From Clostridiales bacterium (lineage in GTDB: Bacteria > Bacillota > Clostridia > Christensenellales > Aristaeellaceae), in contig CP069419.1 in NCBI GenBank assembly GCA_017569285.1, positions 682,001 through 746,000 of the forward strand: a DNA stretch of 64,000 bases, given 5' to 3'. The notes under the pieces were generated by a model. That model was not told where the DNA came from, made no database searches, and was given only the letters and a program-made list of their open reading frames with translations. Shown here one piece after another: positions 1 to 21,074 of the stretch (within the stretch, counting starts at the first letter, position 1; each line of letters begins with the position of its first letter). Both the position numbers and the translations under genes were made by a program.

Positions 1-3000
1 CGCCGTCAGCGATGTCAACCTTGCTGACCTCAATGTGGGTCTTGGCATCCTCTACCAGCAGCACGCCGTCTTCGGTCACTGTACCGGTGGAGGTTACCTT
101 GCCGGTTTCGTCAATCGTGAAGGTCGTCGTTGCTGCGATCGTATATCCATCCGGAGCCACTGTCTCCTTCAGCTTATACTCAACGCCCGTCTTCAGGCCC
201 TTTACAACATGCGCTTCCTTCGTGGAATCCCATTCTGTGACTACCTTGCCTTCGCTGTCCAGAATCTGGATATGCGCACCTTCAAGCTCGGCACCGCCGG
301 CAATGTCTACCTTGCTGACCTTGATGCTGGTCTTCGCATCTTCCACCAGGATGACCGTGTTTCCATCATCATCGATGATTGTCTTTGCTTTTGTTGTTAC
401 ATTACCAGCTTTGTCAACTGCAAAAGTGATATCCGTTGTGACTGTGTACCCATCTGGAGCTATTGCCTCACGCAGTGTGTATGTCGCGCCTGCATCCAGG
501 TTCTTGATGATGTGGTCGCCTTCCGCCTTGCTCGACGTCCAGCTGTCTACGACCTTGCCGTCCTTATCCAGCACGATCAGTACCGCGCCTTCGACTTCTT
601 CGCTGCCCGCGATGTCCGTCTTCCGCACTTCGATATCCAGGAGCGCATCCTTCACCAGGATGACCGTGTTCCCTTCTTCGTCCGTCGTGGTGGATCCCTT
701 TGTCGTTACACTGCCATCCTTGTTCACCGTGAACTCGATGTCTGTCGCATACGCATATCCGGTCGGCGCCACCGTCTCACGCAGCGTGTAGCTTTCGCCC
801 GCGTTCAGGTGCTCGACCACATGAGTCTTGCCTTCCTCGGAGACCCAGCTGTCGACTACCTTCTCGTCCTTGTCCAGAACAACCAGTGTCGCGCCTGCAA
901 CTTCTTCGCTGCCCGCAATATCGGTCTTCTTCACCTCAACATGGATGAGAGCATCCTTCACCAGAATGACCTGGTTTCCGTCTTCATCATGTGTCAGTGC
1001 ATTTCCGGCATCTACTGTGCCGTCTTTCTTCACCGTGAACTCGATATCTGTCGTGTACGCGTAGCCTTCCGGCGCCACTGTCTCACGCAGCGTGTAGTTT
1101 TCGCCTGCGTTCAGGTGCTCGACCACATGAGTCTTGCCTTCCTCGGAGACCCAGCTGTCGACTACCTTCTCGTCCTTGTCCAGAACAACCAGTGTCGCGC
1201 CTGCAACTTCTTCGCTGCCCGCAATATCGGTCTTCTTCACCTCAACATGGATGAGAGCATCCTTCACCAGAATGACCTGGTTTCCGTCTTCATCATGTGT
1301 CAGTGCATTTCCGGCATCTACTGTGCCGTCTTTCTTCACCGTGAACTCGATATCTGTCGTGTACGCGTAGCCTTCCGGCGCCACTGTCTCACGCAGCGTG
1401 TAGTTTTCGCCTGCATTCAGGTGCTCGACCACATGGGTCTTGCCTTCCTCGGAGACCCAGCTGTCGACTACCTTCTCGTCCTTGTCCAGAACAACCAGTG
1501 TCGCGCCCGCGACTTCTTCGCTGCCCGCGATATCGGTCTTCTTCACCTCAACATGGATGAGAGCATCCTTCACCAGAATGACCTGGTTTCCGTCTTCATC
1601 ATGTGTCAGCGCATTTCCGGCATCTACTGTGCCGTCTTTCTTCACCGTGAACTCGATATCTGTCGTGTACGCATAACCTTCCGGCGCCACTGTCTCACGC
1701 AGCGTGTAGCTTTCGCCTGCGTTCAGGTGCTCGACCACATGGGTCTTCCCTTCCTCGGAGACCCAGCTGTCGACTACCTTCTCGTCCTTATCCAGAACAA
1801 CCAGCGTCGCGCCCGCGACTTCTTCGCTGCCCGCGATATCGGTCTTCTTCACCTCAACATGGATGAGAGCATCCTTCACCAGAATGACCTGGTTTCCGTC
1901 TTCATCATGTGTCAGTGCATTTCCGGCATCTACTGTGCCGTCTTTCTTCACCGTGAACTCGATATCTGTCGTGTACGCATAACCTTCCGGCGCCACCGTC
2001 TCACGCAGCGTGTAGCTTTCGCCCGCGTTCAGGTGCTCGACCACATGGGTCTTCCCTTCCTCGGAGACCCAGCTGTCGACTACCTTCTCGTCCTTATCCA
2101 GAACAACCAGCGTCGCGCCCGCGACTTCTTCGCTGCCCGCGATATCGGTCTTCTTCACCTCAACATGGATGAGAGCATCCTTCACCAGAATGACCTGGTT
2201 TCCGTCTTCATCATGTGTCAGCGCATTTCCGGCATCTACTGTGCCGTCTTTCTTCACCGTGAACTCGATATCTGTCGTGTACGCATAACCTTCCGGCGCC
2301 ACCGTCTCACGCAGCGTGTAGCTTTCGCCTGCGTTCAGGTGCTCGACCACATGGGTCTTCCCTTCCTCGGAGACCCAGCTGTCGACTACCTTCTCGTCCT
2401 TATCCAGAACAACCAGCGTCGCGCCCGCGACTTCTTCGCTGCCCGCGATATCGGTCTTCTTCACCTCAACATGGATGAGAGCATCCTTCACCAGAATGAC
2501 CTGGTTTCCGTCTTCATCATGTGTCAGCGCATTTCCGGCATCTACTGTGCCGTCTTTCTTCACCGTGAACTCGATATCTGTCGTGTACGCATAACCTTCC
2601 GGCGCCACCGTCTCACGCAGCGTGTAGCTTTCGCCTGCGTTCAGGTGCTCGACCACATGGGTCTTCCCTTCCTCGGAGACCCAGCTGTCGACTACCTTCT
2701 CGTCCTTATCCAGAACAACCAGTGTCGCGCCCGCGACTTCTTCGCTGCCCGCGATATCGGTCTTCTTCACCTCAACATGGATGAGAGCATCCTTCACCAG
2801 AATGACCTGGTTTCCGTCTTCATCATGTGTCAGTGCATTTCCGGCATCTACTGTGCCGTCTTTCTTCACCGTGAACTCGATATCTGTCGTGTACGCATAA
2901 CCTTCCGGCGCCACAACTTCATGCAATTTATAAGTTTTGTTTGTCACAAGGCCTGTGATCTTTTTAGGTTCGTTACCAGAAATCCATTCCTTGAACGCAT

Positions 3001-6000
3001 TGCCTTCGGCATCCAGAATCTGAATTTTCGCACCAGGCAATTCTTCGCTCTTTGCGACATCCTGCTTACTAACGCTGATTTCTGTCTGGCTGTTTGTGAT
3101 GGTATATGCCCATATGTCTTCAGAAATCTTATGAACAACAGGCGTCTTATAACCCGGAACCTGTACTTCGGACACCGTATACTCGATCTCCGCGCCGCCT
3201 TCGTACTTGTTCAGGCCAGTCCACACATGCTTCCACTCATTACCCGCGTTCAGCGTCACTTCGCCGGCTTCCTCGTTATTCGCCAGCAGTTTTACCGTCA
3301 CGCTCGCCGGACGGAAGCCGTCATGGTCCTCACTGTCGTTCCAGACCTTCACAACAGACGCTTCGGTATGCTTCACGTCATAGCTGTTCGTCAGCGTCGT
3401 CACCGTGCCGTTCACGCTCGTGTCGGTCAGGCTGTAGCCTTCCGGCATATTGCCTTCAGCCCAGCTGTATGTAATTTCCTGGCCGCCGCTGTACTTGTCC
3501 AGGCCGGTAATCGTCTTCTTCGCCCAGTTGTCTTCAGACGTCAGCGTCACGCTCTTGTCCGTCGCCTTGCCGTTCGCCAGCAGCGTCACGGTCAGCGTCG
3601 CCGGACGGAAGCCGTCATGGTCCTCACTGTCGTTCCAGACCTTCACAACAGACGCTTCGGTATGCTTCACGTCATAGCTGTTCGTCAGCGTCGTCACCGT
3701 GCCGTTCACGCTCGTGTCGGTCAGGCTGTAGCCTTCCGGCATATTGCCTTCAGCCCAGCTGTATGTAATTTCCTGGCCTGGCCGCCGCTGTACTTGTCCA
3801 GGCCGGTAATCGTCTTCTTCGCCCAGTTGTCTTCAGACGTCAGCGTCACGCTCTTGTCCGTCGCCTTGCCGTTCGCCAGCGCGTCACGGTCAGCGTCGCC
3901 GGACGGAAGCCGTCATGGTCCTCACTGTCGTTCCAGACCTTCACAACAGACGCTTCGGTATGCTTCACGTCATAGCTGTTCGTCAGCGTCGTCACCGTGC
4001 CGTTCACGCTCGTGTCGGTCAGGCTGTAGCCTTCCGGCATATTGCCTTCAGCCCAGCTGTATGTAATTTCCTGGCCGCCGCTGTACTTGTCCAGGCCGGT
4101 AATCGTCTTCTTCGCCCAGTTGTCTTCAGACGTCAGCGTCACGCTCTTGTCCGTCGCCTTGCCCGTCGCCCCGAGGGTCACGGTCAGCGTCGCCGGACGG
4201 AAGCCGTCATGGTCCTCGCTGTCGTTCCAGACCTTCACAACAGACGCTTCGGTATGCTTCACGTCATAGCTGTTCGTCAGCGTCGTCACCGTGCCGTTCA
4301 CGCTCGTGTCGGTCAGGCTGTAGCCTTCCGGCATATTGCCTTCAGCCCAGCTGTATGTAATTTCCTGGCCGCCGCTGTACTTGTCCAGGCCGGTAATCGT
4401 CTTCTTCGCCCAGTTGTCTTCAGACGTCAGCGTCACGCTCTTGTCCGTCGCCTTGCCGTTCGCCAGCAGCGTCACGGTCAGCGTCGCCGGACGGAAGCCG
4501 TCATGGTCCTCACTGTCGTTCCAGACCTTCACAACAGACGCTTCGGTGTGCTTCACGTCATAGCTGTTCGTCAGCGTCGTCACCGTGCCGTTCACGCTCG
4601 TGTCGGTCAGGCTGTAGCCTTCTGGCATATTGCCTTCAGCCCAGCTGTATGTAATTTCCTGGCCGCCGCTGTACTTGTCCAGGCCGGTAATCGTCTTCTT
4701 CGCCCAGTTGTCTTCAGACGTCAGCGTCACGCTCTTGTCCGTCGCCTTGCCGTTCGCCAGCAGCGTCACGGTCAGCGTCGCCGGACGGAAGCCGTCATGG
4801 TCCTCACTGTCGTTCCAGACCTTCACAACAGACGCTTCGGTATGCTTCACGTCATAGCTGTTCGTCAGCGTCGTCACCGTGCCGTTCGCGCTCGTGTCGG
4901 TCAGGCTGTAGCCTTCCGGCATATTGCCTTCAGCCCAGCTGTATGTAATTTCCTGGCCGCCGCTGTACTTGTCCAGGCCGGTAATCGTCTTCTTCGCCCA
5001 GTTGTCTTCAGACGTCAGCGTCACGCTCTTGTCCGTCGCCTTGCCGTTCGCCAGCAGCGTCACGGTCAGCGTCGCCGGACGGAAGCCGTCATGGTCCTCA
5101 CTGTCGTTCCAGACCTTCACAACAGACGCTTCGGTATGCTTCACGTCATAGCTGTTCGTCAGCGTCGTCACCGTGCCGTTCACGCTCGTGTCGGTCAGGC
5201 TGTAGCCTTCCGGCATATTGCCTTCAGCCCAGCTGTATGTAATTTCCTGGCCGCCGCTGTACTTGTCCAGGCCGGTAATCGTCTTCTTCGCCCAGTTGTC
5301 TTCAGACGTCAGCGTCACGCTCTTGTCCGTCGCCTTGCCGTTCGCCAGCCGCGCCACGGTCAGCGTCGCCGGACGGAAGCCGTCATGGTCCTCACTGTCG
5401 TTCCAGACCTTCACAACAGACGCTTCGGTATGCTTCACGTCATAGCTGTTCGTCAGCGTCGTCACCGTGCCGTTCACGCTCGTGTCGGTCAGGCTGTAGC
5501 CTTCCGGCATATTGCCTTCAGCCCAGCTGTATGTAATTTCCTGGCCGCCGCTGTACTTGTCCAGGCCGGTAATCGTCTTCTTCGCCCAGTTGTCTTCAGA
5601 CGTCAGCGTCACGCTCTTGTCCGTCGCCTTGCCGTTCGCCAGCAGCGTCACGGTCAGCGTCGCCGGACGGAAGCCGTCATGGTCCTCGCTGTCGTTCCAG
5701 ACCTTCACAACAGACGCTTCGGTATGCTTCACGTCATAGCTGTTCGTCAGCGTCGTCACCGTGCCGTTCACGCTCGTGGTCGGTCAGGCTGTAGCCTTCC
5801 GGCATATTGCCTTCAGCCCAGCTGTATGTAATGTCCTGGCCGCCGCTGTACTTGTCCAGGCCGGTAATCGTCTTCTTCGCCCAGTTGTCTTCAGACGTCA
5901 GCGTCACGCTCTTGTCCGTCGCCTTGCCGTTCGCCAGCAGCGTCACGGTCAGCGTCGCCGGACGGAAGCCGTCATGGTCCTCACTGTCGTTCCAGACCTT

Positions 6001-9000
6001 CACAACAGACGCTTCGGTATGCTTCACGTCATAGCTGTTCGTCAGCGTCGTCACCGTGCCGTTCACGCTCGTGTCGGTCAGGCTGTAGCCTTCCGGCATA
6101 TTGCCTTCAGCCCAGCTGTATGTAATTTCCTGGCCGCCGCTGTACTTGTCCAGGCCGGTAATCGTCTTCTTCGCCCAGTTGTCTTCAGACGTCAGCGTCA
6201 CGCTCTTGTCCGTCGCCTTGCCGTTCGCCAGCAGCGTCACGGTCAGCGTCGCCGGACGGAAGCCGTCATGGTCCTCACTGTCGTTCCAGACCTTCACAAC
6301 AGACGCTTCGGTGTGCTTCACGTCATAGCTGTTCGTCAGCGTCGTCACCGTGCCGTTCACGCTCGTGTCGGTCAGGCTGTAGCCTTCCGGCATATTGCCT
6401 TCAGCCCAGCTGTATGTAATTTCCTGGCCGCCGCTGTACTTGTCCAGGCCGGTAATCGTCTTCTTCGCCCAGTTGTCTTCAGACGTCAGCGTCACGCTCT
6501 TGTCCGTCGCCTTGCCGTTCGCCAGCAGCGTCACGGTCAGCGTCGCCGGACGGAAGCCGTCATGGTCCTCACTGTCGTTCCAGACCTTCACAACAGACGC
6601 TTCGGTGTGCTTCACGTCATAGCTGTTCGTCAGCGTCGTCACCGTGCCGTTCGCGCTCGTGTCGGTCAGGCTGTAGCCTTCTGGCATATTGCCTTCAGCC
6701 CAGCTGTATGTAATTTCCTGGCCGCCGCTGTACTTGTCCAGGCCGGTAATCGTCTTCTTCGCCCAGTTGTCTTCAGACGTCAGCGTCACGCTCTTGTCCG
6801 TCGCCTTGCCGTTCGCCAGCAGCGTCACGGTCAGCGTCGCCGGACGGAAGCCGTCATGGTCCTCACTGTCGTTCCAGACCTTCACAACAGACGCTTCGGT
6901 GTGCTTCACGTCATAGCTGTTCGTCAGCGTCGTCACCGTGCCGTTCGCGCTCGTGTCGGTCAGGCTGTAGCCTTCTGGCATATTGCCTTCAGCCCAGCTG
7001 TATGTAATTTCCTGGCCGCCGCTGTACTTGTCCAGGCCGGTAATCGTCTTCTTCGCCCAGTTGTCTTCAGACGTCAGCGTCACGCTCTTGTCCGTCGCCT
7101 TGCCGTTCGCCACGCGCGTCACGGTCAGCGTCGCCGGACGGAAGCCGTCATGGTCCTCACTGTCGTTCCAGACCTTCACAACAGACGCTTCGGTATGCTT
7201 CACGTCATAGCTGTTCGTCAGCGTCGTCACCGTGCCGTTCACGCTCGTGTCGGTCAGGCTGTAGCCTTCCGGCATATTGCCTTCAGCCCAGCTGTATGTA
7301 ATTTCCTGGCCGCCGCTGTACTTGTCCAGGCCGGTAATCGTCTTCTTCGCCCAGTTGTCTTCAGACGTCAGCGTCACGCTCTTGTCCGTCGCCTTGCCGT
7401 TCGCCAGCAGCGTCACGGTCAGCGTCGCCGGACGGAAGCCGTCATGGTCCTCGCTGTCGTTCCAGACCTTCACAACAGACGCTTCGGTATGCTTCACGTC
7501 ATAGCTGTTCGTCAGCGTCGTCACCGTGCCGTTCACGCTCGTGTCGGTCAGGCTGTAGCCTTCCGGCATATTGCCTTCAGCCCAGCTGTATGTAATTTCC
7601 TGGCCGCCGCTGTACTTGTCCAGGCCGGTAATCGTCTTCTTCGCCCAGTTGTCTTCAGACGTCAGCGTCACGCTCTTGTCCGTCGCCTTGCCGTTCGCCA
7701 GCAGCGTCACGGTCAGCGTCGCCGGACGGAAGCCGTCATGGTCCTCACTGTCGTTCCAGACCTTCACAACAGACGCTTCGGTATGCTTCACGTCATAGCT
7801 GTTCGTCAGCGTCGTCACCGTGCCGTTCACGCTCGTGTCGGTCAGGCTGTAGCCTTCTGGCATATTGCCTTCAGCCCAGCTGTATGTAATTTCCTGGCCG
7901 CCGCTGTACTTGTCCAGGCCGGTAATCGTCTTCTTCGCCCAGTTGTCTTCAGACGTCAGCGTCACGCTCTTGTCCGTCGCCTTGCCGTTCGCCACCCCGG
8001 TCACGGTCAGCGTCGCCGGACGGAAGCCGTCATGGTCCTCACTGTCGTTCCAGACCTTCACAACAGACGCTTCGGTATGCTTCACGTCATAGCTGTTCGT
8101 CAGCGTCGTCACCGTGCCGTTCACGCTCGTGTCGGTCAGGCTGTAGCCTTCCGGCATATTGCCTTCAGCCCAGCTGTATGTAATTTCCTGGCCGCCGCTG
8201 TACTTGTCCAGGCCGGTAATCGTCTTCTTCGCCCAGTTGTCTTCAGACGTCAGCGTCACGCTCTTGTCCGTCGCCTTGCCTTGCCGTTCGCCAGCAGCGT
8301 CACAGTCAGCGTCGCCGGACGGAAGCCGTCATGGTCCTCACTGTCGTTCCAGACCTTCACAACAGACGCTTCGGTGTGCTTCACGTCATAGCTGTTCGTC
8401 AGCGTCGTCACCGTGCCGTTCACGCTCGTGTCGGTCAGGCTGTAGCCTTCCGGCATATTGCCTTCAGCCCAGCTGTATGTAATTTCCTGGCCGCCGCTGT
8501 ACTTGTCCAGGCCGGTAATCGTCTTCTTCGCCCAGTTGTCTTCAGACGTCAGCGTCACGCTCTTGTCCGTCGCCTTGCCGTTCGCCAGCAGCGTCACGGT
8601 CAGCGTCGCCGGACGGAAGCCGTCATGGTCCTCACTGTCGTTCCAGACCTTCACAACAGACGCTTCGGTATGCTTCACGTCATAGCTGTTCGTCAGCGTC
8701 GTCACCGTGCCGTTCACGCTCGTGTCGGTCAGGCTGTAGCCTTCCGGCATGCTGCCTTCCTTCCAGGTGTACACAATCTCCGTACCCGCTGCGAACTTCT
8801 CCAGGTTTTCAACTGTTTCTTCCCAATTGTTATCTTCGCTCAGCGTAACGGTTGTTACCTTCGTCTCGCCGTTCATCAGGTCGACGCTCAGCGTCTCAGG
8901 ACGTATGCCGTCCTGGTCATTCGCATCGTCCCAGACCTTCTTCACTGTCGCAGACGTCTTTTCCGTTGTACGGCTGTTCGTCAGGGTTGTGATCGTGCCT

Positions 9001-11483
9001 TCCTTATCCGTGCTGGTCAGGCTGTAGCCTTCCGGCATGCTGCCTTCCTTCCAGGTGTACACAATCTCCGTACCCGCTGCGAACTTCTCCAGGTTTTCAA
9101 CTGTTTCTTCCCAGCTGTTATCCTCGCTCAGCGTAACGGTTGTTACCTTCGTCTCGCCATTCATCAGGTCGACGCTCAGCGTCTCAGGACGTACGCCGTC
9201 CTGGTCATTCGCATCGTCCCAGACCTTCTTCACTGTCGCAGACGTCTTTTCATTTATGTGCGTGTTCGTAACAGTCGTTTTACTTCCAATCGTTGTAGCA
9301 GCAGTTGAGTATGTTACTGTATAATTGTCATTCAGATCACCATTGTTTTCTATTGGATTGCCAATAACATCCAGTTCTTTTACTATATAGACAATTTCAA
9401 CACCGCCAAAGGCATTCTTGTCCAGATTTTCCCACTTATAATACCAGTTGTTGGCAGAATTCAGTGTGACAGGAGCTCCATGTGTGACAGTGCCTTCATA
9501 AAGTTGTACCTGAATGCTTCCGAGCCGCTTTCCGTCATTGTTATCAGAGTCATCCCATGCCTTCTCAACTTCAATATTTGTTTTCTTTTTATTATGTGTA
9601 TTTGTTATTGTGATCTTTTTGCCATTTTCTGTAGTAGCAGTAGAATATATAACCTTATAATCATCATTCAGGTTATTATTGTTATTTATAGAATTGCCGT
9701 TGCTGTCCAGTTCCTTTACCGTGTATACAATCGGAGTACCGTCAGACTCTTCTTTTTCCAAATTTTCCCATTTGCAATACCAGTTGTTGCTCTGGTTAAG
9801 CGTCACAGGATCCCCTTTGGGTGCAGAACCTTCATACAGCTGAACCCGGACACTCGTCGGACGCAGATTGTCATGGTTGTTCGCATCTACCCAGACCTTT
9901 TCCACTTCGATGGTAACATCTGCTTTTTTCGTATTTGTAAATGTACCAACATTGGCTTCCGTTCCGGAAATCTGTGTCCAGCTGGATGCATTCGACGGTG
10001 TCGTCGTCTTTTCCAGTTTCATGGTAACATCCTGCTGGTGTCCTTGTGCGGTTAATCTAATATAAATGTAATGATCATCAGGAATTATGTTGCTGTCGTT
10101 GCATTCTTCCTGAATTCTGTAATATCTGGTAATTGTCTGCCAGCCGCTAATATTACCATTAGATTCAGTTCTGAAGTCCGCTTTACTGATATGGAACGCT
10201 TTTTCAAAAGTAATAGTACCTGCTGTACCCTGTGCTGTGGCAAACAGCTCTGTCGGCTCCATTGTTCTTTCATCAAGCCGGTAAATTTTGAAAGTAAATG
10301 TTTTTTGCAGATCTGATGAAGATACCTGGCTTCCATCCTGCTTAACAAATCTCTTGGTGATACTGACACCCGTTTCAACATGAGCATCATAAGGTCTAAT
10401 ACGGCGATAAAAATGGAACTCAATTTCGGGTGAATCAAATGTTTTCCTAGTGACAACCCAACCTGCACCCGCTCCGTTTACCTGCTTGACATTTGCATTT
10501 GGCGCAAGAAATATGCCTGCAGCTGTATCAATCTGCAATTCACCTCGAAAATTATACATATTGAAAACGATACGGCTGAGGATATATGTATCAACATCTC
10601 TGTTATGGTCTTTGTTCTGATCCTTTTGCGAGGTAGCACTCTTCACGGTAATCTTGTGAGAGCCATCAGGATTCTTTACGTCTACCTGAAGCTGTTTAAT
10701 CAGATATGTTCCATTTGTGTCACTGATATTAAATACAACAGTTTGATCTTCGTACTTTATTATCGTCCACCCATCCTGCTTCATAACATTTTTCATGTTT
10801 CTGCAGTCTACATAGATGGTGCCCGACGTTGGAAATCCAGGTGCAGTCAGGTCAATTGTCTTATCCCATTCTGACGTGAATGTTGGAGTACATGTTGCAG
10901 TTTTGCCATTTAGAATTCTTGATGAATTCTCGGCATAATCCAGAAGGTAATCCACATATGCGTTTATTTCTTCCTTTTCACGTCCATACACATTTGTTGC
11001 ATGATCCAGATCCGAATACTGGATATACGGCGCATCATGGATATCTGGTCCTGGATTCTTATGGTCATCCTGCTTAAATCCTTTATGCGTTTGATCTTTA
11101 TTAATATAAATATCAAAGTCGATATTCGTATCTTGACCATTCCAGAATACAGTATTGTTAACCAGTTCTCCGATATAGAAAGGAATGGAATCTGTATCTT
11201 CAATAAAAATCTCAATGGCTCTTCTGTCCATTTCGAACTGTTTTACGGCAAAATTAGTTTCTGTATGTCCTTTTTGCTTATATTTATTTGCGATTACGCC
11301 AAAGTTGACACCAGGCCCCAGAATTGCTTCTGGCGACAACGCTCCTTCCGGAAAATCCACCGGAAGTTCACTTTGATATACCGCTTCATTGCCGTCGCTC
11401 AGAGCGCCGGCGGGCAACATGACGTTCAATATCATTAATACTGCTGACCAGAGTGAAATGATTCTCTTTATGCTGCGATTCAT
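1..11483 (-). CDS. giant multidomain Cna_B/SpaA surface adhesin (partial, frame broken in repeats)
   Basis: Secreted, probably cell-surface fibre of about 3,800 residues in the window, with its C-terminus beyond position 1. It starts at an ATG preceded by GAGGAG. Order: signal peptide (1-30, ending near AGALS); head domain (about 40-360, motif FGVIANKYKQ); a pilin isopeptide-linkage-like domain (about 370-510); four diverged Cna_B domains (about 519, 638, 748, 844); 19 Cna_B domains in a 294-bp array; then at least ten SpaA/prealbumin-like domains, seven in a 306-bp array. Each Cna_B unit keeps Lys (VVKVW), Glu (YSWAEG) and Asn (TLTNSY), the residues that form self-generated isopeptide bonds in this family. 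The frame shifts at about 8276-8285 (+5), 5778 (+1), 3880 (-1) and 3774-3783 (+5); between shifts it is fully open. Assembly error in repeats is the simplest cause, true inactivation the alternative. No sortase motif can be judged because the C-terminus is missing. Binding partner unknown. Confidence 0.85.
772..2916 (-). repeat. 306-bp tandem array, seven SpaA-like domain units
   Basis: Seven near-identical in-frame units of 306 bp (102 residues) recur at exactly 306-bp spacing; the landmark AGACCCAGCTGTCGAC is at 841, 1147, 1453, 1759, 2065, 2371 and 2677. Each encodes a prealbumin-like domain with Lys in VEVKKTDIAG, the LRETVAPEGY motif and a closing ILVKDALIH strand. Flanking domains (1-770 and 2916-3100) are of the same family but diverged. 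Differences between copies are mainly synonymous T/C changes. There are no indels here, in contrast to the 294-bp array. Confidence 0.95.
3300..8740 (-). repeat. 294-bp tandem array of Cna_B domain units
   Basis: Eighteen full units and one chimeric unit, each 98 residues, with the landmark for DSEDHDGF at about 3325, 3619, 3915, 4209, 4503, 4797, 5091, 5385, 5679, 5974, 6268, 6562, 6856, 7150, 7444, 7738, 8032, 8331 and 8625. Spacing is 294 except where indels make it 296, 295 or 299. Units are nearly identical apart from four two-state sites and one hotspot that encodes Leu-Leu-Ala in most copies. The copy number may be unreliable because the array is much longer than a short read. Confidence 0.95.
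8745..9260 (-). repeat. 288-bp duplicated Cna_B unit pair
   Basis: Two consecutive 96-residue Cna_B domains (SATVKKVWDDANDQDG type) are almost identical to each other over 288 bp but distinct from the 294-bp array downstream. They differ at a few codons (Val/Ile after DQDG, Ser/Asn in the SEDN segment). They lie between the diverged AT-rich domains and the main array, so the protein shows a gradient from old diverged to recently amplified domains. Confidence 0.9.
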
Positions 11484-11535: not shown

Positions 11536-14500
11536 TCATTCTCTGGCAGTTATCAGTTTAACGATGACTTTCCAGAAATAATTCCCGTTTTCAGTGTCGA
11601 CCACATAGCTGAATTCAAGATCATTTGCATCTTCTATTTCTTTGTATTCTTCGCCATCCGGACTATACTGCCAGCTGACTTCATACTGATCATCTTCAGT
11701 GAAGTTGACCAGTTCAGCTGTAAGCTCAATCTTTGTCCCGACAAACAGCATGTTCAGGATCGTTCCGTCCATATTGGAGTGGATGACAATTTCTCTTGTT
11801 GGCAGTTCTTCCATTCCTTCGGGCTTCAGCGTTGCAATAATATCTACCAGGTTAATATAACGGGCTGGTACGCTTTCATCAGGATCGAAGATGAAAGCAC
11901 GTTCTGCGGCTTCAATCAGTTTCACCCACAGGTCGGTGCCAACATCCAGATGAGCAACAACATCATCTCCGTCAATGCTTCCGTACACATTCGCACCGAT
12001 ATCGATAGCCGCGTACACTTTGATATAGCCCATCTCAAGCATTTCTTCATCGGAAAGCATCTGCTTCTCAATATCAGCCAGAAGGATGTACTGCAGGATA
12101 TCGTCACCAGTATAGATCTCAGCCCAGCCTTCAGCTTCGGTATCCTTAATCCAGAGTTCACTTTCAAAGTCAGCATGGCCGGCTACGGCTGCTTCTTCTT
12201 TAGTGCCGTCGTAGAAATCCACGCCGTTCTGGTTCAGGATCTGAATCTTCCGATATCCCAGTTCGATCAGCTGTTTTTCTGTCAAAGGCTGCTTTTCGGT
12301 CTCAGCAGGTTTGAGGAATTTCTGAACTTCATCTTCAGTATAGATCTCAGCCCAGCCTTCTACTTCGGTATCCTTGATCCAGAGTTCAGCACCGGTTTCA
12401 GCAGTGCCGATCACTGTGGCTTCTTCTGTGGTGTTGTCATAGAGATTGGTACCGTTCTGGTTTACGATCTGGATCTTGCGGTATCCCAGTTCAATCAGCT
12501 GTTCCTCGGTCAGGGGTTTTGCTTCTTCCTCTTCGGTTTCCTCTTCGGTTGCTTCCTCTTCTGCTTCTTCAGTCTCTTCTTCAGATTCAGTTTCTTCTGC
12601 TGTTTCCTCTTCTGCCTCGGCTTCTTCTTCAGTCACTTCGGTCTCGGTCGCTTCTACGATCACTTCGGTTTCAGCAGCAGCTTCTTCCGTTTCTTCCACC
12701 GTTTCTACTACTTCTTCGGAAACAACCGCTTCAGTTTCAGCAGTTTCTTCAGCAACTACTGCTTCGGCTTCTTCAGTGCCTACATCAGAAGCGGTTTCTT
12801 CTTCGGTCTCTTCAGAAACAATCGTCTCTTCTTCCGCTTCGGTTTCCGCGGGGATTTCTTCAATTACTTCTTCGGTTTCTTCTTCCGCCGCCTTCACAGT
12901 CGCGTGGATCTGGTACTCGGGAGAGAATTCTCCGTCAGCCAGTTTGAAGCGGAAGAAGTTGTCCGCGTTTTCTTCCGTTACTTCTACCGTCAGTTTCAGG
13001 CCGTAGCCGGCTTTCTTCCATTCCTCGCTGTCTGCGGAACGGGTCTGCCAGACAATCTGGTTATCCAGTTCGATATCCGCATTGGCGTAAACGGTGACGG
13101 TTCCTTCTTCTTCGTTATTATTGGCAGTTACCCAGGTATTGATTTTCGGCTTGCTTGTTTCTGCCGGTTTTTCTTCAGCAGGCTCCGTATTTTCATTGCT
13201 TGCTGTTGCTTCTTCTGCATTGTTTTCAACGGTTTCTGCGATTACCGCCTGGGTATTTTCCGTATTTTCGACTTCGGTCTGTTCCGTTTCAGTGGTGCCA
13301 TTTTCAGACGGTTCGGCGGGTACTTCCGCATCTGTGGCGGGCACTTCGTCAGTCGTCTGTGCAGGTTCGTTGTTCAGGCTTTCGTTATTTTCCGTATTTC
13401 CATTCGTTTCAGTAGTCTCGGTGATTTCTTCAGCAGTTTCACCTTCGACTACAGGCGCTTCATTCTGCTCATCGACTGTTTCGGTTTCTTCGTCAATTTC
13501 TTCTTCGATTTCTTCCGGTTCTTCAACGACCTTCACCTCAGCGCTCAGCTGGAAAGCGCCCTGGCCGGAAATCCCAATGATGTAGGTTTGATCATACTGA
13601 ACCTTCATCTCATAGGATTTGGTTCCGTCTTCATTATCGATGAAGTTCACAGCGCGCTCATTGATCCGCACCTGGATATTCCCGTTTGTCTGCAGAACCA
13701 GAATGATGTTCTGGGTCCGGGCGGCTTTGATGTAATACAGGGTCTCGTCCACACCCGCAGATCCGGAGACCGTGGAGCCGACCTTCATCTCAGTAATATT
13801 CTCATATTTCATTTCCGGGGTAATTTCCGGGAAATTCTCCGCGATGTATTCCGGGTCAATATATCCGCCATTGTCTTCCAGTTCTACCAGTTCATCTTCA
13901 CTGTAGTTCGCAGGTTCATTTGCAAGCTCATCAATTCCATCTGCAGGTGTATTTTCTTCAGTAACGACGGCTTCATCACTGTTCGCATTGTTTTCTTCGG
14001 CAGGAGTAGTGTCTTCCTGAACGGGGGCAGCATTCAGGTCGGCAGCATCTTCCTGGGCAGGAGCAGTTTCCGCAGCAGAACCATCGTTCTGTGCAGGTGT
14101 TTCTTCCACGGTTTCAGGACTGGTTTCCTGCGCGGGAGCTTCTTCCGTGGTCACAGGAGTGGTCTCCTGGGCAGGAGTTTCTTCCACGGTCACAGGAGCA
14201 GTCTCCTGGGCAGGCGCTTCTTCCGTGGTCGCGGGAGTGGTTTCCTGGGCAGGAGTTTCTTCCGTCGTCACAGGAGCGGTCTCCTGCGCGGGAGCTTCTT
14301 CCGTGGTCACAGGAGCGGTCTCCTGGGCAGGGGTTTCTTCCGTGATCACGGGAGCGGTTTCCTGGGCAGGAGTTTCTTCCGTGGTCACAGGAGCGGTCTC
14401 CTGCGCGGGAGCTTCTTCCGTGGTCACAGGAGCGGTCTCCTGGGCAGGCGCTTCTTCCGTGGTCACGAGAGCAGTCTCCTGGGCAGGTGCTTCTTCCACG

Positions 14501-14949
14501 GTCACAGAAGCGGTCTCCTGGGCGGGAGTTTCTTCCGTGGTCGCGGGAGCGGTCTCCTGAGCGGGAGCTTCTTCCACAGTCGCGGGAGCTTCTTCCACAG
14601 TCGCGGGAGCAGTCTCCTGGGCGGGAGCTTCTTCCACGGTCGCAGGAGCGGTCTCCTGGGCCGGAGCTTCTTCCACAGTCGCGGGAGCAGTCTCCTGGGC
14701 CGGAGCTTCTTCCACGGTCGCGGGAGCGGTCTCCTGGGCCGGAGCTTCTTCCACAGTCGCGGGAGCAGTCTCCTGGGCGGGAGCCGCTGCTGCTTCAGTA
14801 TTGTCGGTCGCATTCGCTTCCGCCGCAGGTTCCTGTACTACGGGCAGTTCCGCTTCAGGATCCCCGTTCGCAAACACCGTCGCAATGCTGGAAACCAGCA
14901 GTGCGATAATGCACAGCGCGGAAAGCAGTTTCTTGAACCGTTTTGTCAT
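11536..14949 (-). CDS. secreted acidic stalk protein with PAQET repeats, SH3-like and Ig-like domains
   Basis: Exported protein of 1,137 residues, function unknown. It has a clear signal peptide (1-27, ending TVFA) and a Pro/Glu/Thr-rich tandem repeat (57-284). A beta-sandwich segment follows (about 380-473), then long Glu/Thr linkers, an Ig-like segment (about 603-685), an extremely Glu-rich linker, three SH3-like repeats (about 813-1010, each starting like LGYRKIQI and containing ELWIKDTE), and a C-terminal Ig-like domain with VSWQYSPDG. There is no LPXTG, transmembrane tail or S-layer domain, so its retention at the surface is unexplained. It lies 52 bp upstream of the giant adhesin with no terminator between, and a good promoter sits 150 bp upstream of its start, so the two are probably co-transcribed. 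Domain names rest on motif appearance only. Confidence 0.8.
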   Translation of the reverse strand: MTKRFKKLLSALCIIALLVSSIATVFANGDPEAELPVVQEPAAEANATDNTEAAAAPAQETAPATVEEAPAQETAPATVEEAPAQETAPATVEEAPAQETAPATVEEAPAQETAPATVEEAPATVEEAPAQETAPATTEETPAQETASVTVEEAPAQETALVTTEEAPAQETAPVTTEEAPAQETAPVTTEETPAQETAPVITEETPAQETAPVTTEEAPAQETAPVTTEETPAQETTPATTEEAPAQETAPVTVEETPAQETTPVTTEEAPAQETSPETVEETPAQNDGSAAETAPAQEDAADLNAAPVQEDTTPAEENNANSDEAVVTEENTPADGIDELANEPANYSEDELVELEDNGGYIDPEYIAENFPEITPEMKYENITEMKVGSTVSGSAGVDETLYYIKAARTQNIILVLQTNGNIQVRINERAVNFIDNEDGTKSYEMKVQYDQTYIIGISGQGAFQLSAEVKVVEEPEEIEEEIDEETETVDEQNEAPVVEGETAEEITETTETNGNTENNESLNNEPAQTTDEVPATDAEVPAEPSENGTTETEQTEVENTENTQAVIAETVENNAEEATASNENTEPAEEKPAETSKPKINTWVTANNNEEEGTVTVYANADIELDNQIVWQTRSADSEEWKKAGYGLKLTVEVTEENADNFFRFKLADGEFSPEYQIHATVKAAEEETEEVIEEIPAETEAEEETIVSEETEEETASDVGTEEAEAVVAEETAETEAVVSEEVVETVEETEEAAAETEVIVEATETEVTEEEAEAEEETAEETESEEETEEAEEEATEEETEEEEAKPLTEEQLIELGYRKIQIVNQNGTNLYDNTTEEATVIGTAETGAELWIKDTEVEGWAEIYTEDEVQKFLKPAETEKQPLTEKQLIELGYRKIQILNQNGVDFYDGTKEEAAVAGHADFESELWIKDTEAEGWAEIYTGDDILQYILLADIEKQMLSDEEMLEMGYIKVYAAIDIGANVYGSIDGDDVVAHLDVGTDLWVKLIEAAERAFIFDPDESVPARYINLVDIIATLKPEGMEELPTREIVIHSNMDGTILNMLFVGTKIELTAELVNFTEDDQYEVSWQYSPDGEEYKEIEDANDLEFSYVVDTENGNYFWKVIVKLITARE
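14098..14781 (-). repeat. 39-bp tandem repeat encoding PAQETAPxTxEEx
   Basis: Seventeen full 13-residue units plus one 7-residue partial unit (PATVEEA) lie in the N-terminal part of the secreted stalk protein. The first five are identical at protein level (PAQETAPATVEEA); later ones vary at the Ala/Thr/Ser, Ala/Val and Val/Thr positions. The composition (Pro every few residues, strongly acidic) suggests an extended, wall-spanning stalk. Confidence 0.93.
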
Positions 14950-16657: not shown

Positions 16658-19015
16658 TCAATCAAAGACTGCTTCGTCCTCTCCGATTGCTTCCACCTCT
16701 TCAGCAGGCGCTTCCGTCTCCGGCAGACCGAAGTATGCCAGCAGGATTGCCTGGGACCACGTCACCTGGGCGGTGATCACGTAGTTCTGCAGGTAGGGAG
16801 TGTAGAAGTCGTAGTAGATGTTCGAGTAGACCGGGATGGTCGGCAGCACCTCGTTATAGCGGCGCTGGAAGGACATCCACTTGCTGACATACTGGAACAC
16901 ATCGCCGGGCTCTGTCTTCCGCATGTCCACAGCCAGGTCGAACAGGTACTCGTCATCGGAATACGTGTTGTTCCACTGCATATGGCCGACGGTCTTGTCC
17001 GTGCTGTAGGTGATGGCCGGGTCCACGATCACATGGAAGTTCGTGGCCAGGTAGATCATATCCGTGGTGCGGTCCGCTTCGCGGTAGTAGGACTTCAGCA
17101 GTTCTTCCATGGCGGTGGGCACCAGTGTCAGCTTGATGCCGACCTGCGCCAGGTTGTCCACGAAGTTGCCTTCCTCAGACATGAAATCCGCCATATGGTT
17201 GCCGGCCGGATACATCATCTTCAGATCCAGGGCAACCAGCTCATCGCCGATCATCTTGCAGCGGACGTCGTCCGTCTCGGGATTGAATGTTTCGCCGTTC
17301 CGGTTCAGTGTCCAGCCGGCACGGTCCAGCAGTTTCCGGGCCTGATCCAGGTCCACCGTGTACTTGGTCAGCAGGCTTGTTTCACCGTCGTCCCACTCAT
17401 CCGCCAACGCGTCCCATGCCTTGACAGCCGCTTCGTATTCGGCTTCAGAGCGGACCCAGCGGTTCTTGAGCTTCAACATCCGGTCCAGTTCGTCTTCTTC
17501 ATATTCGATGGGTGTTCCGATTGCGTCGACCTCCGGCAGGAAGTTCACCGGGAATCCGATCCGCCGGGTCAGCAGCTGATATTCCCACTGTTCCAGTCCG
17601 AAATAGCCGTCCACGCGCAGGCCGTTCGCTCCGCAGTATTCCTCAGTCAGCAGATCCCGGTCCATGCACCAGGCAATCGCCTGGCGGACTTCCTTCTCAT
17701 TGACGGTCTTCCAGTCATAGGTAAAGGTCAGGAAAGCCAGACCGATCCGCGGATAAGCCTGATACTCAACAGCTCCTTCGCCTTTTCCGGCAAGTCCCTT
17801 TTCAACGGTTTCCTTATAAGTCACCTTGTTTACCAGGTGCTTTTCACCCGCGGCGATCTCTTCGATCACCGTGTCGTTGTCCGCAACGGTGAAAGCGATC
17901 TTTTCAATGGAGGGAAGGACCAGTTCAATATCATTGCCTTCCGCGTCCTGTACGGGATTGCCGAAGGAATCCGTATCCTGCACCACACGGCCCTGTTCCC
18001 GGGCCTTTTCCCACGCGTTCGCAAGCGCGCCGCCGGGCAGGTTGTTGACCATCCAGGCGCCCTTGAATTCGGGGTTGATCTCAAAGTGGCCGGTCACACC
18101 GTCCCAGGATTTGATCACATAGGGTCCGGATACCTTGGAGGGGAATGTGTTGTACCCGGTTTCAGGATCCAGGATCGTCTTCTTCAGGAGGTCCGCCGTA
18201 TAAATGGGAGCGGATTTCTCAGCGATCCGGTAGCCCACGGTCTCACCCTGCTCGTTCAGCACGGGTTCTTCCACGGAATCTTCCGCGTTGACGATCTTGA
18301 TGCCCAGGGGGTTGTCCTCCAGGTCCTTGAAGCCGTAAACCACCTTGCATCCGGGAGCGATTACGTCGATCGGATACGGGACGGTCATCAGCAGGCCGAT
18401 CTCAAAGAAGTAAGGAAGAAAGTCCGGATCCAGCCAGATCCGCAGCTGGTAATCGCTCAGCACGGTCACCGCGGTCAGGTAATCCAGGTCCTTGTCGGGA
18501 TCCAGGGTTTCCCCGGCCATTGCCTTGCGGCGGGCCGCAATATATTCATCGTAATCCACCAGGTGCTCAGCCCGGTAGATTTTTCCGCCGATTTCTTCAA
18601 TTTCGGGGCTCATCATGAGCAGGAAGGAGAAGGCATAATCCCACGCGGTGATCGGCGTTCCGTCGGAATACTTCAGGTTGTCCGCAATCCGGAGCGTGTA
18701 CTGCCGGTAACCGTCATTGTCCGTTCCGACGATCACTTCCCGTACCACGCTCGGATCAAACACATAGGTGCCCTGGTTCTGGTCCCAGTTGACCAGGTTG
18801 TATCCGTGAATCAGCGCACGGACGTCGATATCCGCGGTATCATTGCCGAACATTTCGGTGAAGAAGTCGCCCTTGGTAATCGTCGGATGGGAAACGATCA
18901 GCTCATCCGGAAACTCGATTTCCTCCTGCGTCTCTTCCGCAGCCGCCAGCGGCAGGCAGGACAGCAGCAGCATGGCAGCCAGCAGCATGCTCAGGATTTT
19001 TTGCAGCTTGTTCAC
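16658..19015 (-). CDS. ABC transporter solute-binding protein, family 5 (oligopeptide type)
   Basis: 785 residues, longer than the usual 520-620 of DppA/OppA-type binding proteins, which capture peptides, nickel or sugars for an ABC importer. N-terminal export signal with LLLSC followed by LAAAEE; the Cys could serve as a weak lipobox, otherwise signal peptidase I would cut near AAA-EE. Family 5 hallmarks are the YTLRIADNLKYSDGTPITAWDYAFSF-type segment (about 107-131), SGPYVIKSWDG (about 300) and QAIAWCMDRDLL (about 440). The start codon is GTG with AAAGGG ten bases upstream. No permease or ATPase gene lies next to it, so it is an orphan. It lies 78 bp downstream of the Cna_B protein gene and may share its transcript. 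Confidence 0.85.
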   Translation of the reverse strand: MNKLQKILSMLLAAMLLLSCLPLAAAEETQEEIEFPDELIVSHPTITKGDFFTEMFGNDTADIDVRALIHGYNLVNWDQNQGTYVFDPSVVREVIVGTDNDGYRQYTLRIADNLKYSDGTPITAWDYAFSFLLMMSPEIEEIGGKIYRAEHLVDYDEYIAARRKAMAGETLDPDKDLDYLTAVTVLSDYQLRIWLDPDFLPYFFEIGLLMTVPYPIDVIAPGCKVVYGFKDLEDNPLGIKIVNAEDSVEEPVLNEQGETVGYRIAEKSAPIYTADLLKKTILDPETGYNTFPSKVSGPYVIKSWDGVTGHFEINPEFKGAWMVNNLPGGALANAWEKAREQGRVVQDTDSFGNPVQDAEGNDIELVLPSIEKIAFTVADNDTVIEEIAAGEKHLVNKVTYKETVEKGLAGKGEGAVEYQAYPRIGLAFLTFTYDWKTVNEKEVRQAIAWCMDRDLLTEEYCGANGLRVDGYFGLEQWEYQLLTRRIGFPVNFLPEVDAIGTPIEYEEDELDRMLKLKNRWVRSEAEYEAAVKAWDALADEWDDGETSLLTKYTVDLDQARKLLDRAGWTLNRNGETFNPETDDVRCKMIGDELVALDLKMMYPAGNHMADFMSEEGNFVDNLAQVGIKLTLVPTAMEELLKSYYREADRTTDMIYLATNFHVIVDPAITYSTDKTVGHMQWNNTYSDDEYLFDLAVDMRKTEPGDVFQYVSKWMSFQRRYNEVLPTIPVYSNIYYDFYTPYLQNYVITAQVTWSQAILLAYFGLPETEAPAEEVEAIGEDEAVFD

Positions 19016-19093: not shown

Positions 19094-20992
19094 TCAGTCG
19101 AAGCAGTCGCCCACGTGGTTGATGATCGTGTTGATACCCAGTGCGGTGTCGTATTCTTCAAAGTAGGCGAAATTGCCGCCCGGAACAGTCGGCTTCTTGC
19201 CGCCGTTCGGGGGTTCGGGAATCCGTGTGATCCGGTTGGTGAAAACGGTCGCATTTCCGTTGATCTGCGTGTTCTCGAGGACATAACCGACCGATTCCTG
19301 TTCTTTCCAGGAATACTCCACCGGTTCTCCGTTGATCTTCACTGGCAGTCCAGTCGCTGTAAACGTCCATCCGTTGGTTTCATCCAGCACATAAACCGTG
19401 CCGACCGGCTGCAGGATCATCGCCAGGGATTTCGGCCGGATCCGCTGGAAGTTGTTTCCGTCATTCCAGACCTTGCTCACCGTGGCGGTGGTTGTTTCCG
19501 GTGTATAGTTGTTCGTGATGTTGTATCCGTTCACCTCAGCGGTATACCATTCGACCGGATCCTCGTTCACGGTGTACCGGATCTCGTTGCCGTCCGCGTA
19601 GTAGCGGGGCTTTTCCGCAAAGGTAGCCACCCAGCCGCCGTTCGCGGTCATCACCGCGGAATCGACCTCTGAGCCGTCCGCATACAGCCTCACCGTGATG
19701 GACTGCGGGCGGTTGCCGTCCTTGTTGTTGTTATCGTTCCAGGTCTTGGTCACCGGGATGTCAATGATTTCGATTTCCGGTTCCGGGGTCGGGGTGGGTG
19801 TGTAGCGGTTGAACAGGACGGCAGCCGCCGTTCCGGTGCCGACCGTAATGCTCATGCCGGTCACGCTGTCGCTGGTCAGGGTATAGGCCTGCACCAGGTT
19901 TTCGGCATTCCGTTCCACTACGTAATAGGTGCCGGGAACCAGGTTGTCCAGGGTATACTGGCCGCCCGTAAACTGGCTGTAGGTCACCGTCATCGGCATC
20001 CGGGGGTCTGGTCCGTTGATTTCAAAGCTCAGCGCGCCCGTGGAAGCCATCGGATCCTCGTTCGGTTCCGCGGCCACCGGCTCACGGTAGGCATAGCGGA
20101 AGGAAAGCGTTGCGGACTCCCCGCTCTTCACCAGTACGGCATCACCGACACGGCTGTTCGCGGGATCCATCTCATAGCCTTCCACCAGGGAATCGGCGTT
20201 CTCTTCCTGCACCACATAGGCGCCGGGCAGGACGCTGCCGAAGCTGTAGGTGCCGCCGGAGATCTGTCCGTAGGTCAGGGTCACCGGCATTTTCGGGTCG
20301 GGGCCGGTCACCGTCAGCTTCAGTCCGCTGACGTCCGCACCCGCCGGGGCACCGGAAACCGCCGCCTGCAGGGACAGGGTCCCGGTCTGCAGGGTGTTCA
20401 CAATCGTCAGTCCGGAAACCGACGCGGTATATCCGTCAGGAATGGTTTCCTCCACGGAATAGGCAATCGCGTTCGTTTCGCCCTTCTTCGTCACAGGAAG
20501 GTTTTCCCAGGTGACTTTCCAGCCGTTGCCGGCGTTCGCGGTCTTCTCCGCGCCGAAGGGCTTCCCGTCCGCCAGCAGGCGCACCTGCACGGAGGTCGGC
20601 CGCACTGCGGCAGCGTTTTCATTGTCGTTCCAGGTGACCGCCGCGGCCGCGACGGTCTTCTTCACCGCGTGGGTATACGTGACCACGGTGATATCCTTAC
20701 CAGAGGAAGACTTGACATATCCGGCAACATCGGGGATTTCCCATTCGCTGCCGGCCGGGGCGGAAGCCTCGCCTGTCCAGCTGTTCGCGACGTTCAGGAC
20801 AACAGCCTGCCCGCCGAGCGACACCGATACGTCTTTCCGCAGGTTATCGTAATTGTCCTCATCCGCCCACTCCACGGTGATGTACCGGGTTACGTTGTCC
20901 GTGCCCTCCGCCATGGAAGAGCAGACTCCGCAGCCGATCATCAGCGCAAATGCGCACACGACAGACACAATCCTCTGCAGCTTTCTTTTCAT
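19094..20992 (-). CDS. secreted Cna_B/SpaA-domain protein without visible sortase signal
   Basis: 632 residues from the ATG at 20992, chosen because GGGAG lies just upstream and a signal peptide follows directly (MKRKLQRIV to SSMAEG); an in-frame ATG 54 bp upstream would bury the signal. After a short N-terminal segment come a Cna_B domain (AAVTWNDNENAA), two related SpaA-like segments each with GPDPxMPxTxTY, a Thr-Pro hinge (RYTPTPTPEPE, about 405), and two more Cna_B domains (VTKTWNDNNNKDG and VSKVWNDGNNF). The Lys, Glu and Asn of isopeptide formation are visible. The protein ends NHVGDCFD: no LPXTG, hydrophobic segment or positive tail. Likely an exported surface or matrix component of unknown ligand. 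It has its own promoter at 21075-21103. Confidence 0.85.
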   Translation of the reverse strand: MKRKLQRIVSVVCAFALMIGCGVCSSMAEGTDNVTRYITVEWADEDNYDNLRKDVSVSLGGQAVVLNVANSWTGEASAPAGSEWEIPDVAGYVKSSSGKDITVVTYTHAVKKTVAAAAVTWNDNENAAAVRPTSVQVRLLADGKPFGAEKTANAGNGWKVTWENLPVTKKGETNAIAYSVEETIPDGYTASVSGLTIVNTLQTGTLSLQAAVSGAPAGADVSGLKLTVTGPDPKMPVTLTYGQISGGTYSFGSVLPGAYVVQEENADSLVEGYEMDPANSRVGDAVLVKSGESATLSFRYAYREPVAAEPNEDPMASTGALSFEINGPDPRMPMTVTYSQFTGGQYTLDNLVPGTYYVVERNAENLVQAYTLTSDSVTGMSITVGTGTAAAVLFNRYTPTPTPEPEIEIIDIPVTKTWNDNNNKDGNRPQSITVRLYADGSEVDSAVMTANGGWVATFAEKPRYYADGNEIRYTVNEDPVEWYTAEVNGYNITNNYTPETTTATVSKVWNDGNNFQRIRPKSLAMILQPVGTVYVLDETNGWTFTATGLPVKINGEPVEYSWKEQESVGYVLENTQINGNATVFTNRITRIPEPPNGGKKPTVPGGNFAYFEEYDTALGINTIINHVGDCFD

Positions 20993-21074
20993 CTTTTTAT
21001 CTCCCTTCGGTGATACTCCGAAAAGCATTGATGGATAAACAGACACTCATTATGGATATACAAACTCGAAATTA

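What the first reader, a model, noticed from the sequence alone, without database searches (positions are those of the whole stretch)
1..11483. Giant isopeptide-domain fibre with about 23 Cna_B and at least 10 SpaA-like domains
Over 3,800 residues are in the window and the gene still runs off the edge. The domains grade from diverged (N-terminal) to near-identical (middle), then switch to a second family with its own amplified array. Every Cna_B unit keeps the Lys/Glu/Asn triad, so the product may be a covalently cross-linked, very long rod holding the head domain away from the cell.
Basis: partly seen in the sequence, partly recalled or inferred. Interest (0 to 1): 0.7.

Follow-up and report, generated by a model that had tools for sequence, protein, structure and literature searches.

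The report
Giant surface fibre with C-terminal tag
A clostridial gut-type bacterium carries very long, chain-like surface proteins that end in a conserved peptide tag, and genes for such tagged proteins usually sit directly before a gene for a peptide-binding-type protein, which points to an undescribed way of handling surface fibres.

Summary
The array is real: 23 Cna_B and 10 SpaA-like units lie in the window, and 4 and 5 more beyond its edge. As assembled, however, three small frame breaks inside the near-identical Cna_B array cut the gene into four pieces (about 4,850 residues). Other giant repeat genes of this genome break likewise; relatives hold long unbroken ones. Assembly error is likely but unproven.

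The larger finding lies past the window edge. The fibre has no LPXTG signal; it ends in a conserved tag, FEEYDTPLGVQTIINHVGDCFD, before the stop. In 150 genomes of the family, 86 tag matches occur in 47 genomes, and 67 are followed directly by a gene of one SBP_bac_5 (OppA-like) subfamily. Of 17 informative SBP genes without a detected tag, 14 follow a gene with a diverged tag. Sortase presence does not track the tag across genomes, though some tagged genes sit beside one. In class-wide samples neither the tag (0 of 390 others) nor the full-length SBP subfamily (0 of 380 others) appeared.

I infer that the SBP-like protein recognises the tag and handles or retains these fibres. The genetic link is strong; binding is untested.

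The parts
8256..11483 (-). Piece 1 of the fibre gene (1075 aa): signal-peptide-like start, head (about residues 30-540), first Cna_B units
   Evidence: ORF; Pfam Cna_B 4.9e-90, 6 stretches; head shared with fibres of this genome and of G112, G149
5734..8259 (-). Piece 2 (841 aa): near-identical Cna_B units
3846..5771 (-). Piece 3 (641 aa): near-identical Cna_B units
1..3832 (-). Start of piece 4 (2294 aa open frame, runs on to C1:678951): last Cna_B units of the array, then SpaA units; beyond the window 5 SpaA, 4 Cna_B and the C-terminal tag
3279..8759 (-). Array of 294-nt Cna_B units; contains all three frame breaks (three units of 299, 295 and 298 nt)
539..2914 (-). Array of 306-nt SpaA units, all 7 compared units in step
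11536..14949 (-). Partner gene 53 nt upstream of the fibre: signal peptide, Glu/Pro-rich repeats, Ig-like C-terminal part (Ig-like and SH3-like by eye; no Pfam match to the C-terminal part)
   Evidence: relatives of its C-terminal part beside other fibres
16658..19015 (-). SBP_bac_5 (OppA-like) protein linked to the tag
   Evidence: Pfam 2e-25; PDB OppA 9p48 1.1e-14; linkage
19094..21046 (-). Tagged Cna_B protein (650 aa) directly upstream of the SBP
   Evidence: Pfam 1.4e-56; tag at its end
19097..19171 (-). C-terminal tag inside the window (FAYFEEYDTALGINTIINHVGDCFD)

Best explanation
The gene encodes one of several giant isopeptide-domain surface fibres of a clostridium whose named relatives come from rumen and gut. 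It is exported by an N-terminal signal peptide. Instead of an LPXTG signal it ends in a short conserved linear tag (E-E-Y-x-T-P-L-G, six or seven residues, then N-H-V-G-D-C-F-D in its main form) directly before the stop. An orphan OppA-like (SBP_bac_5) protein, encoded directly after most tagged genes and here about 5 kb upstream of the fibre, recognises this C-terminal peptide and handles or retains the tagged protein at the cell surface. The rod of Cna_B and SpaA domains holds the head away from the cell. Shown: the domains, the tag, its conservation, the gene linkage. Inferred: binding of the tag by the SBP, surface retention, the rod and its bonds, and that the frame breaks are assembly errors.
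For: Tag exactly at the C-terminus in 20 of 20 named loci (that search selects for the tag) and on proteins with different domains: FctA, DUF7507/DUF11, MucBP, Cna_B or a sortase domain in 8 of 10 scanned, no Pfam match in 2. 67 of 86 tag matches are followed by the SBP, and 45 of 47 tag genomes hold it. Of 17 informative SBP genes without a listed tag, 14 follow a gene with a diverged tag. The four tag-linked SBPs of this genome lie more than 70 kb from any BPD_transp_1 permease. The tag is predicted disordered, as a linear motif would be. In 23 of the 26 aligned tags (three diverged rows left out) the last nine codons have 17 DNA versions but one peptide.
Against: Binding is untested; OppA-fold peptide binding is general knowledge and the pocket was not examined. 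The three giant fibres of this genome closest to the window type, including the window's, have no SBP directly behind them. Only 6 of 43 SBPs have a lipobox-like motif, so how the SBP itself stays on the cell is unclear. 14 genomes have the SBP without a listed tag (some of these have a diverged one). The SBP profile was seeded from tag-linked genes, and related genomes are not independent. L099 and L100 have an SBP without a visible tag before it.
Confidence: 0.5

Rival explanations
1. The tag is an unusual or degenerate sortase signal: its T-P-L-G or [TV]-G-[DE] part is cut by a dedicated sortase, and the SBP is only a neighbour.
For: Sortases sit near some tagged genes (C1:3034413 and 3035986 near the fibre ending at 3030353 and the small tagged protein ending at 3037435; G132, G149, G066). 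One tagged protein has a sortase domain itself (L087). Some tags read N-T-G-D (L061, L094).
Against: No hydrophobic segment or basic tail follows the motif. Across 150 genomes, sortase is as common with the tag (39 of 47) as without (78 of 103), p = 0.40 (hand counts; test). G025 (97% complete) has two tagged genes with SBP and no sortase match.
Confidence: 0.15
2. SBP and tagged protein are merely co-transcribed parts of a nutrient-capture system: the SBP binds free peptides or sugars' breakdown products, and the tag is read by something else, for example the partner protein or a wall polymer.
For: SBP_bac_5 proteins normally serve uptake (general knowledge). A half-tag motif occurs inside two partner-type proteins. 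Whole-operon inheritance explains the pairing of tag and SBP types.
Against: No permease within 70 kb of the four tag-linked SBPs. In G025 the order is partner, fibre, SBP, but in most short loci the SBP follows the tagged gene with no partner seen in the DNA held.
Confidence: 0.25
3. The window gene is a decaying or switched-off copy: the frame breaks are real and no full-length fibre is made.
For: Three breaks in this gene as assembled and breaks in other near-identical arrays of the genome. Two other nearly complete assemblies of the genus, G149 and G112, also show a broken giant gene.
Against: Breaks lie only in the near-identical array; the 306-nt array, head and C-terminal part are open. 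The same one-base insertion recurs at one unit position in 5 of 26 units of another array, which suits systematic error. Unbroken tagged frames of 6248, 6117 and 3535 aa occur in relatives, and one of 10303 aa that runs off its contig start.
Confidence: 0.15

Closest known systems
Sortase-anchored isopeptide-domain adhesins and pilins (Cna, RrgB, SpaA types)
   Same: Signal peptide; tandem Cna_B, SpaA or FctA domains with Lys/Glu/Asn or Asp residues
   Different: No LPXTG, membrane helix or basic tail; a different C-terminal tag; linked to an SBP gene
Giant surface proteins of Apilactobacillus kunkeei, Giant1-5, 3,000-8,000 aa (PMC12863079, abstract and outline seen)
   Same: Several giant extracellular proteins in one genome, long repeat-built rods with an N-terminal head
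   Different: Those have beta-solenoid heads; the tag and SBP link are not mentioned in the abstract (full text not read)
OppA-type peptide-binding proteins (SBP_bac_5; PDB 9p48)
   Same: Same domain family
   Different: No permease within 70 kb of the four in this genome; 37 of 43 lack a lipobox-like motif; encoded behind tagged surface proteins
C-terminal sorting-tag systems with a dedicated partner (PEP-CTERM/exosortase, GlyGly-CTERM/rhombosortase; recalled, not tested one by one)
   Same: Short conserved C-terminal tag on different proteins, co-occurring with one gene family
   Different: The linked family has a peptide-binding fold, not a protease or transpeptidase; no hydrophobic helix in the tag; no NCBIfam match

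Membership tests
Isopeptide-domain (Cna_B/SpaA) surface fibre | Tandem domains over the curated cut-offs | tested here: met
Isopeptide-domain (Cna_B/SpaA) surface fibre | Lys, Glu and Asn/Asp kept in whole units | tested here: met
   completed by eye
Isopeptide-domain (Cna_B/SpaA) surface fibre | Isopeptide bonds actually formed | not testable with these tools
   needs mass spectrometry or a structure
LPXTG/sortase-anchored protein | LPXTG, membrane helix and basic tail at the C-terminus | tested here: not met
   C-terminus read directly
LPXTG/sortase-anchored protein | Association with sortase | tested here: inconclusive
   No co-occurrence across 150 genomes (39 of 47 against 78 of 103), but a sortase lies near some tagged genes
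ABC-transport SBP_bac_5 receptor | SBP_bac_5 domain | tested here: met
ABC-transport SBP_bac_5 receptor | Permease gene nearby | tested here: not met
   None within 70 kb for the four tag-linked ones of this genome; two of the other three have one within about 2 kb
ABC-transport SBP_bac_5 receptor | Lipobox (expected in a monoderm) | tested here: inconclusive
   6 of 43 have a lipobox-like motif; no Omp85 match in the genome
Catalogued C-terminal sorting tags (NCBIfam) | Match to a curated tag model | tested here: not met
   No family at E up to 1 for four tagged C-termini of 110 aa; HMMER's filters can drop short weak matches

The most novel reading that the evidence does not exclude
A surface-protein system unlike any catalogued: a C-terminal peptide tag on giant fibres, pilin-like and mucin-binding-like proteins is read by a dedicated, co-encoded OppA-fold protein that has left nutrient transport and become the receptor or escort for the tag, in place of a sortase.
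Probability: 0.4. Interest if true: 0.88.

Novelty: new variant of a known kind. Interest (0 to 1): 0.7.

Why it matters
If the SBP binds the tag, many members of a clostridial family display adhesins by a route that sortase-based annotation misses, and a transport-protein fold has been recruited to handle surface proteins. The tag gives a simple rule for finding these proteins in uncultured genomes, and one peptide-binding assay would test the central claim. The giant fibres are also broken or cut short in several of the assemblies seen here, so their size and number are probably underestimated.

Tried and rejected
Head domain: the AlphaFold model from 5 sequences is weak (mean pLDDT 57.8), and Foldseek against PDB gave no match at E <= 0.001. 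I recalled a likeness to 'choice-of-anchor A' domains; neither Pfam nor NCBIfam reported one. A viral-contig scan with the head found no relative.

Cys as a universal nucleophile or lipid site in the tag: rejected, since diverged tags have Ser, Thr or Ala there.

Sortase as the enzyme of the tag: lowered, not excluded (see rivals). Phase variation or programmed frameshifting at the breaks: not pursued; the changes (+5; +1; +5 with -1) lie at different unit positions.

Seven of the 86 tag matches cover only the first half of the profile and have no SBP behind them; they are probably not working tags but were kept in all totals. Two of them lie inside partner-type proteins.

Papers: search listings with abstract openings only; abstract and outline for PMC12863079. 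The tag was not found in print: one search searched GDCFD, GDCFE, NHVGDCF and INHVGD (12 papers, 10 listed, all judged unrelated from titles and abstract openings), and searched related phrases. The library holds only open-licence PMC papers.

Full report
WHAT IS IN THE WINDOW. The minus strand of window 1-11483 carries most of a giant surface-protein gene that starts at 11483 and ends outside the window at genome C1:678948 (the window is C1:682001-746000 of a 3.27-Mb, two-contig genome). Profile rows give 23 Cna_B and 10 SpaA units inside the window (one broken Cna_B unit has no row of its own and is counted from its place in the array), and 4 Cna_B and 5 SpaA units beyond it (counted by hand). 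The middle Cna_B units are 97-100% identical at the DNA level in 294-nt steps, apart from the damaged ones. The isopeptide residues are kept in every unit that is not cut by a break: Lys/Glu/Asn in Cna_B and Lys/Glu/Asp in SpaA. The script missed one whole Cna_B unit and the third residue of six SpaA units; I read those by eye.

NOT ONE FRAME AS ASSEMBLED. The gene falls into four pieces of 1075, 841, 641 and 2294 aa. Three of 18 units compared have lengths 299, 295 and 298 instead of 294; in the neighbouring 306-nt array none of 7 is out of step. Four other giant repeat genes of the genome are also broken (C1:1198762-1214224, 1219258-1241487, 2987266-3009242, 3011671-3030353), by eye inside their arrays; in one, the same one-base insertion recurs at one position in 5 of 26 units. 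Two other nearly complete assemblies of the genus, G149 and G112, show a broken giant too. But G149 also has an unbroken 6248-aa tagged fibre, G026 has two of 6117 and 3535 aa, and G119 has a 10303-aa frame that runs off its contig start. I take the breaks as probable consensus errors in repeats that reads could not resolve. This is inference; no reads were available.

THE C-TERMINAL TAG. The fibre ends ...WERFEEYDTPLGVQTIINHVGDCFD and stops. Five other proteins of the genome end alike at over 50 bits, and the gene at C1:1219258 ends in a more diverged form. There is no LPXTG, hydrophobic stretch or basic tail, although the genome has two LPSTGG proteins and three sortase matches. A named-genome scan confirmed 20 of 62 candidate stretches; all 20 are titled uncultured Clostridia or Clostridiales, and those titles that name a site give goat omasum or ileum and sheep or buffalo rumen. 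All 20 have the tag directly before the stop, but the scan used the tag as its pattern. For 23 of the 26 tags aligned (the three diverged rows were left out), the last nine codons occur in 17 DNA versions that encode one peptide, with 34.7% synonymous and no nonsynonymous codon differences; the 25 codons before the tag, compared without gaps, differ nonsynonymously in 71%. AlphaFold leaves the tag disordered (block means 38-50) behind well-predicted Cna_B strands. NCBIfam has no match for it.

DISTRIBUTION. In the window genome's family, 47 of 150 sampled genomes (16 of 50 genera) have tag matches at E <= 0.01. In a class-wide sample at E <= 0.001, 1 of 391 genomes matched: the window's own. 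That sample shows one other member of the family, without a match (list cut). The tool does not name the family. Aristaeellaceae is my guess from recall (the genus Aristaeella exists in the taxonomy) and is untested.

THE LINKED GENE. Directly behind the tagged 650-aa protein (19094-21046) lies an SBP_bac_5 protein (16658-19015; Pfam 2e-25; best PDB relative OppA 9p48, 1.1e-14). In the loci first held, 42 of 63 tagged ORFs with enough downstream DNA have such a gene within 400 nt. A profile of 16 such SBPs, seeded from tag-linked loci, was run over the same 150 genomes, scoring up to 7 candidates per genome. Joined by coordinates, 67 of 86 tag matches are followed within 450 nt by an SBP of at least 500 bits. 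Of 76 SBP rows at 750 bits or more, 63 have a listed tag directly before them; of all 99 rows at 500 or more, 67. By genome: both 45, tag only 2, SBP only 14, neither 89. The 19 tag matches without an SBP behind them are 12 full tags, all in the window's own genus and on frames of 935 to 6249 aa, several of which are pieces, and 7 half-matches. In the window the tagged-650/SBP pair stands about 5 kb upstream of the fibre, with the partner gene directly before the fibre; six relatives (L023, L025, L026, L027, L029, L070) keep the order tagged gene, SBP, partner, and in G149 and G112 the giant fibre follows.

A TEST NOT CHOSEN BY THE TAG. From the 32 SBP rows (500 bits or more) without a listed tag I fetched the upstream DNA of 20. 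Three ended at a contig edge within 400 nt. Of the other 17, 14 are preceded by an ORF with a tag-like end, such as PLGFGSFINVGDCLE, PLGIGVGINVGESIE or PLGTNMNLNEGDCID. Nine of the 14 keep P-L-G; L094, L103 and L109 have it altered and L102 and L106 lack it. L107 is preceded by a partner-type protein; L099 and L100 show no tag. A five-residue end pattern, written after seeing these ends, matches 80 of 5,725 stop-ended ORFs of 60 aa or more in the loci searched; read by eye, all 80 look like tags (some loci overlap, so a gene can count twice).

CONTROLS AND CAVEATS. Sortase does not track the tag: 39 of 47 tag genomes and 78 of 103 others have one (p = 0.40; hand counts, test), and G025 has two tagged genes with partner and SBP but no sortase match. 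Against this, sortases do lie near some tagged genes, and one tagged protein contains a sortase domain. In the window genome seven SBP_bac_5 proteins were found; the four tag-linked ones lie more than 70 kb from any BPD_transp_1 match, two of the other three have one within about 2 kb, and the third (C1:180805) also has none within 70 kb. In a class-wide sample the full-length SBP subfamily was not seen in 380 other genomes; 10 had weaker, partial matches up to 343 bits (2 candidates scored per genome). Where a genome holds several tag/SBP pairs, the tag resembled that of the foreign operon with the nearest SBP in 16 of 20 comparisons, its own paralogue in 3, with 1 tie; inheritance of whole operons explains this as well as co-adaptation does. 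Fisher p-values for tag and SBP (about 2e-23) ignore shared ancestry.

MODEL. Ten tagged proteins from other genomes were scanned: FctA, DUF7507/DUF11, MucBP, Cna_B or sortase domains in 8, no match in 2. These are mostly parts of surface adhesins, with the tag where an anchor signal would be. The genome has no Omp85 match, which suggests a monoderm. Proteins of the OppA fold commonly bind short peptides (general knowledge). I therefore propose that the SBP binds the tag as a free C-terminal peptide and either holds the protein at the surface or escorts it. A lipobox-like motif in only 6 of 43 SBPs leaves the SBP's own attachment open; the partner protein is a candidate for wall contact, by eye only. 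The fibre would be a stiff rod that presents its head.

VERDICT. The tag with its linked SBP is the new element. I file it as a new variant of a known kind (C-terminal tags with a dedicated partner) and give 0.4 to the bolder reading that it is a new kind of system.

Noticed in passing
genome C1:2987266-3009242, 3011671-3030353, 1198762-1214224, 1219258-1241487 (L002-L005, L088-L090): Four further giant repeat surface genes of 15-22 kb, each ending in a form of the tag and each broken in its repeats as assembled.
   Followed up: partly
genome C1:3018052-3026705 (L004, L090, L005): The same one-base insertion at the same unit position in 5 of 26 near-identical 324-nt units: systematic sequencing error or spread by conversion.
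   Followed up: partly
L087:6886-8754 minus (G011:C24): A protein with a sortase domain, Cna_B and MucBP that itself ends in the tag and is followed by an SBP. G100:C51 may hold a longer one (sortase match in a 1681-aa frame); not read through.
   Followed up: partly
genome C1:1215488-1215529 and 1242075-1242113 (L088, L089): Half of the tag motif (EEYQTPLGLDE, EEYETPLGLDE) occurs inside two partner-type proteins.
   Followed up: no
G119:C6:1-30909 (L082, L083): A 10303-aa open frame ending in the tag, running off the contig start and followed by an SBP.
   Followed up: no
L001:13239-14846 minus (genome C1:677239-678846): Just downstream of the fibre lies a gene that looks like a GH10 xylanase (by eye, no family search done); a similar one lies near the sortase cluster of G149 (L071).
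   Followed up: no
L003:5319-9228 (genome C1:2981319-2985228): Type IV pilus or type II secretion-like genes (GspF- and PilT-like by eye) upstream of another giant fibre.
   Followed up: no
L102 (G054:C23:18401-20050): Two consecutive ORFs upstream of an SBP gene both end in tag-like peptides.
   Followed up: no
window 14089-14784: 39-nt repeats in the partner gene encode Glu/Pro/Ala-rich segments, probably a flexible spacer.
   Followed up: no
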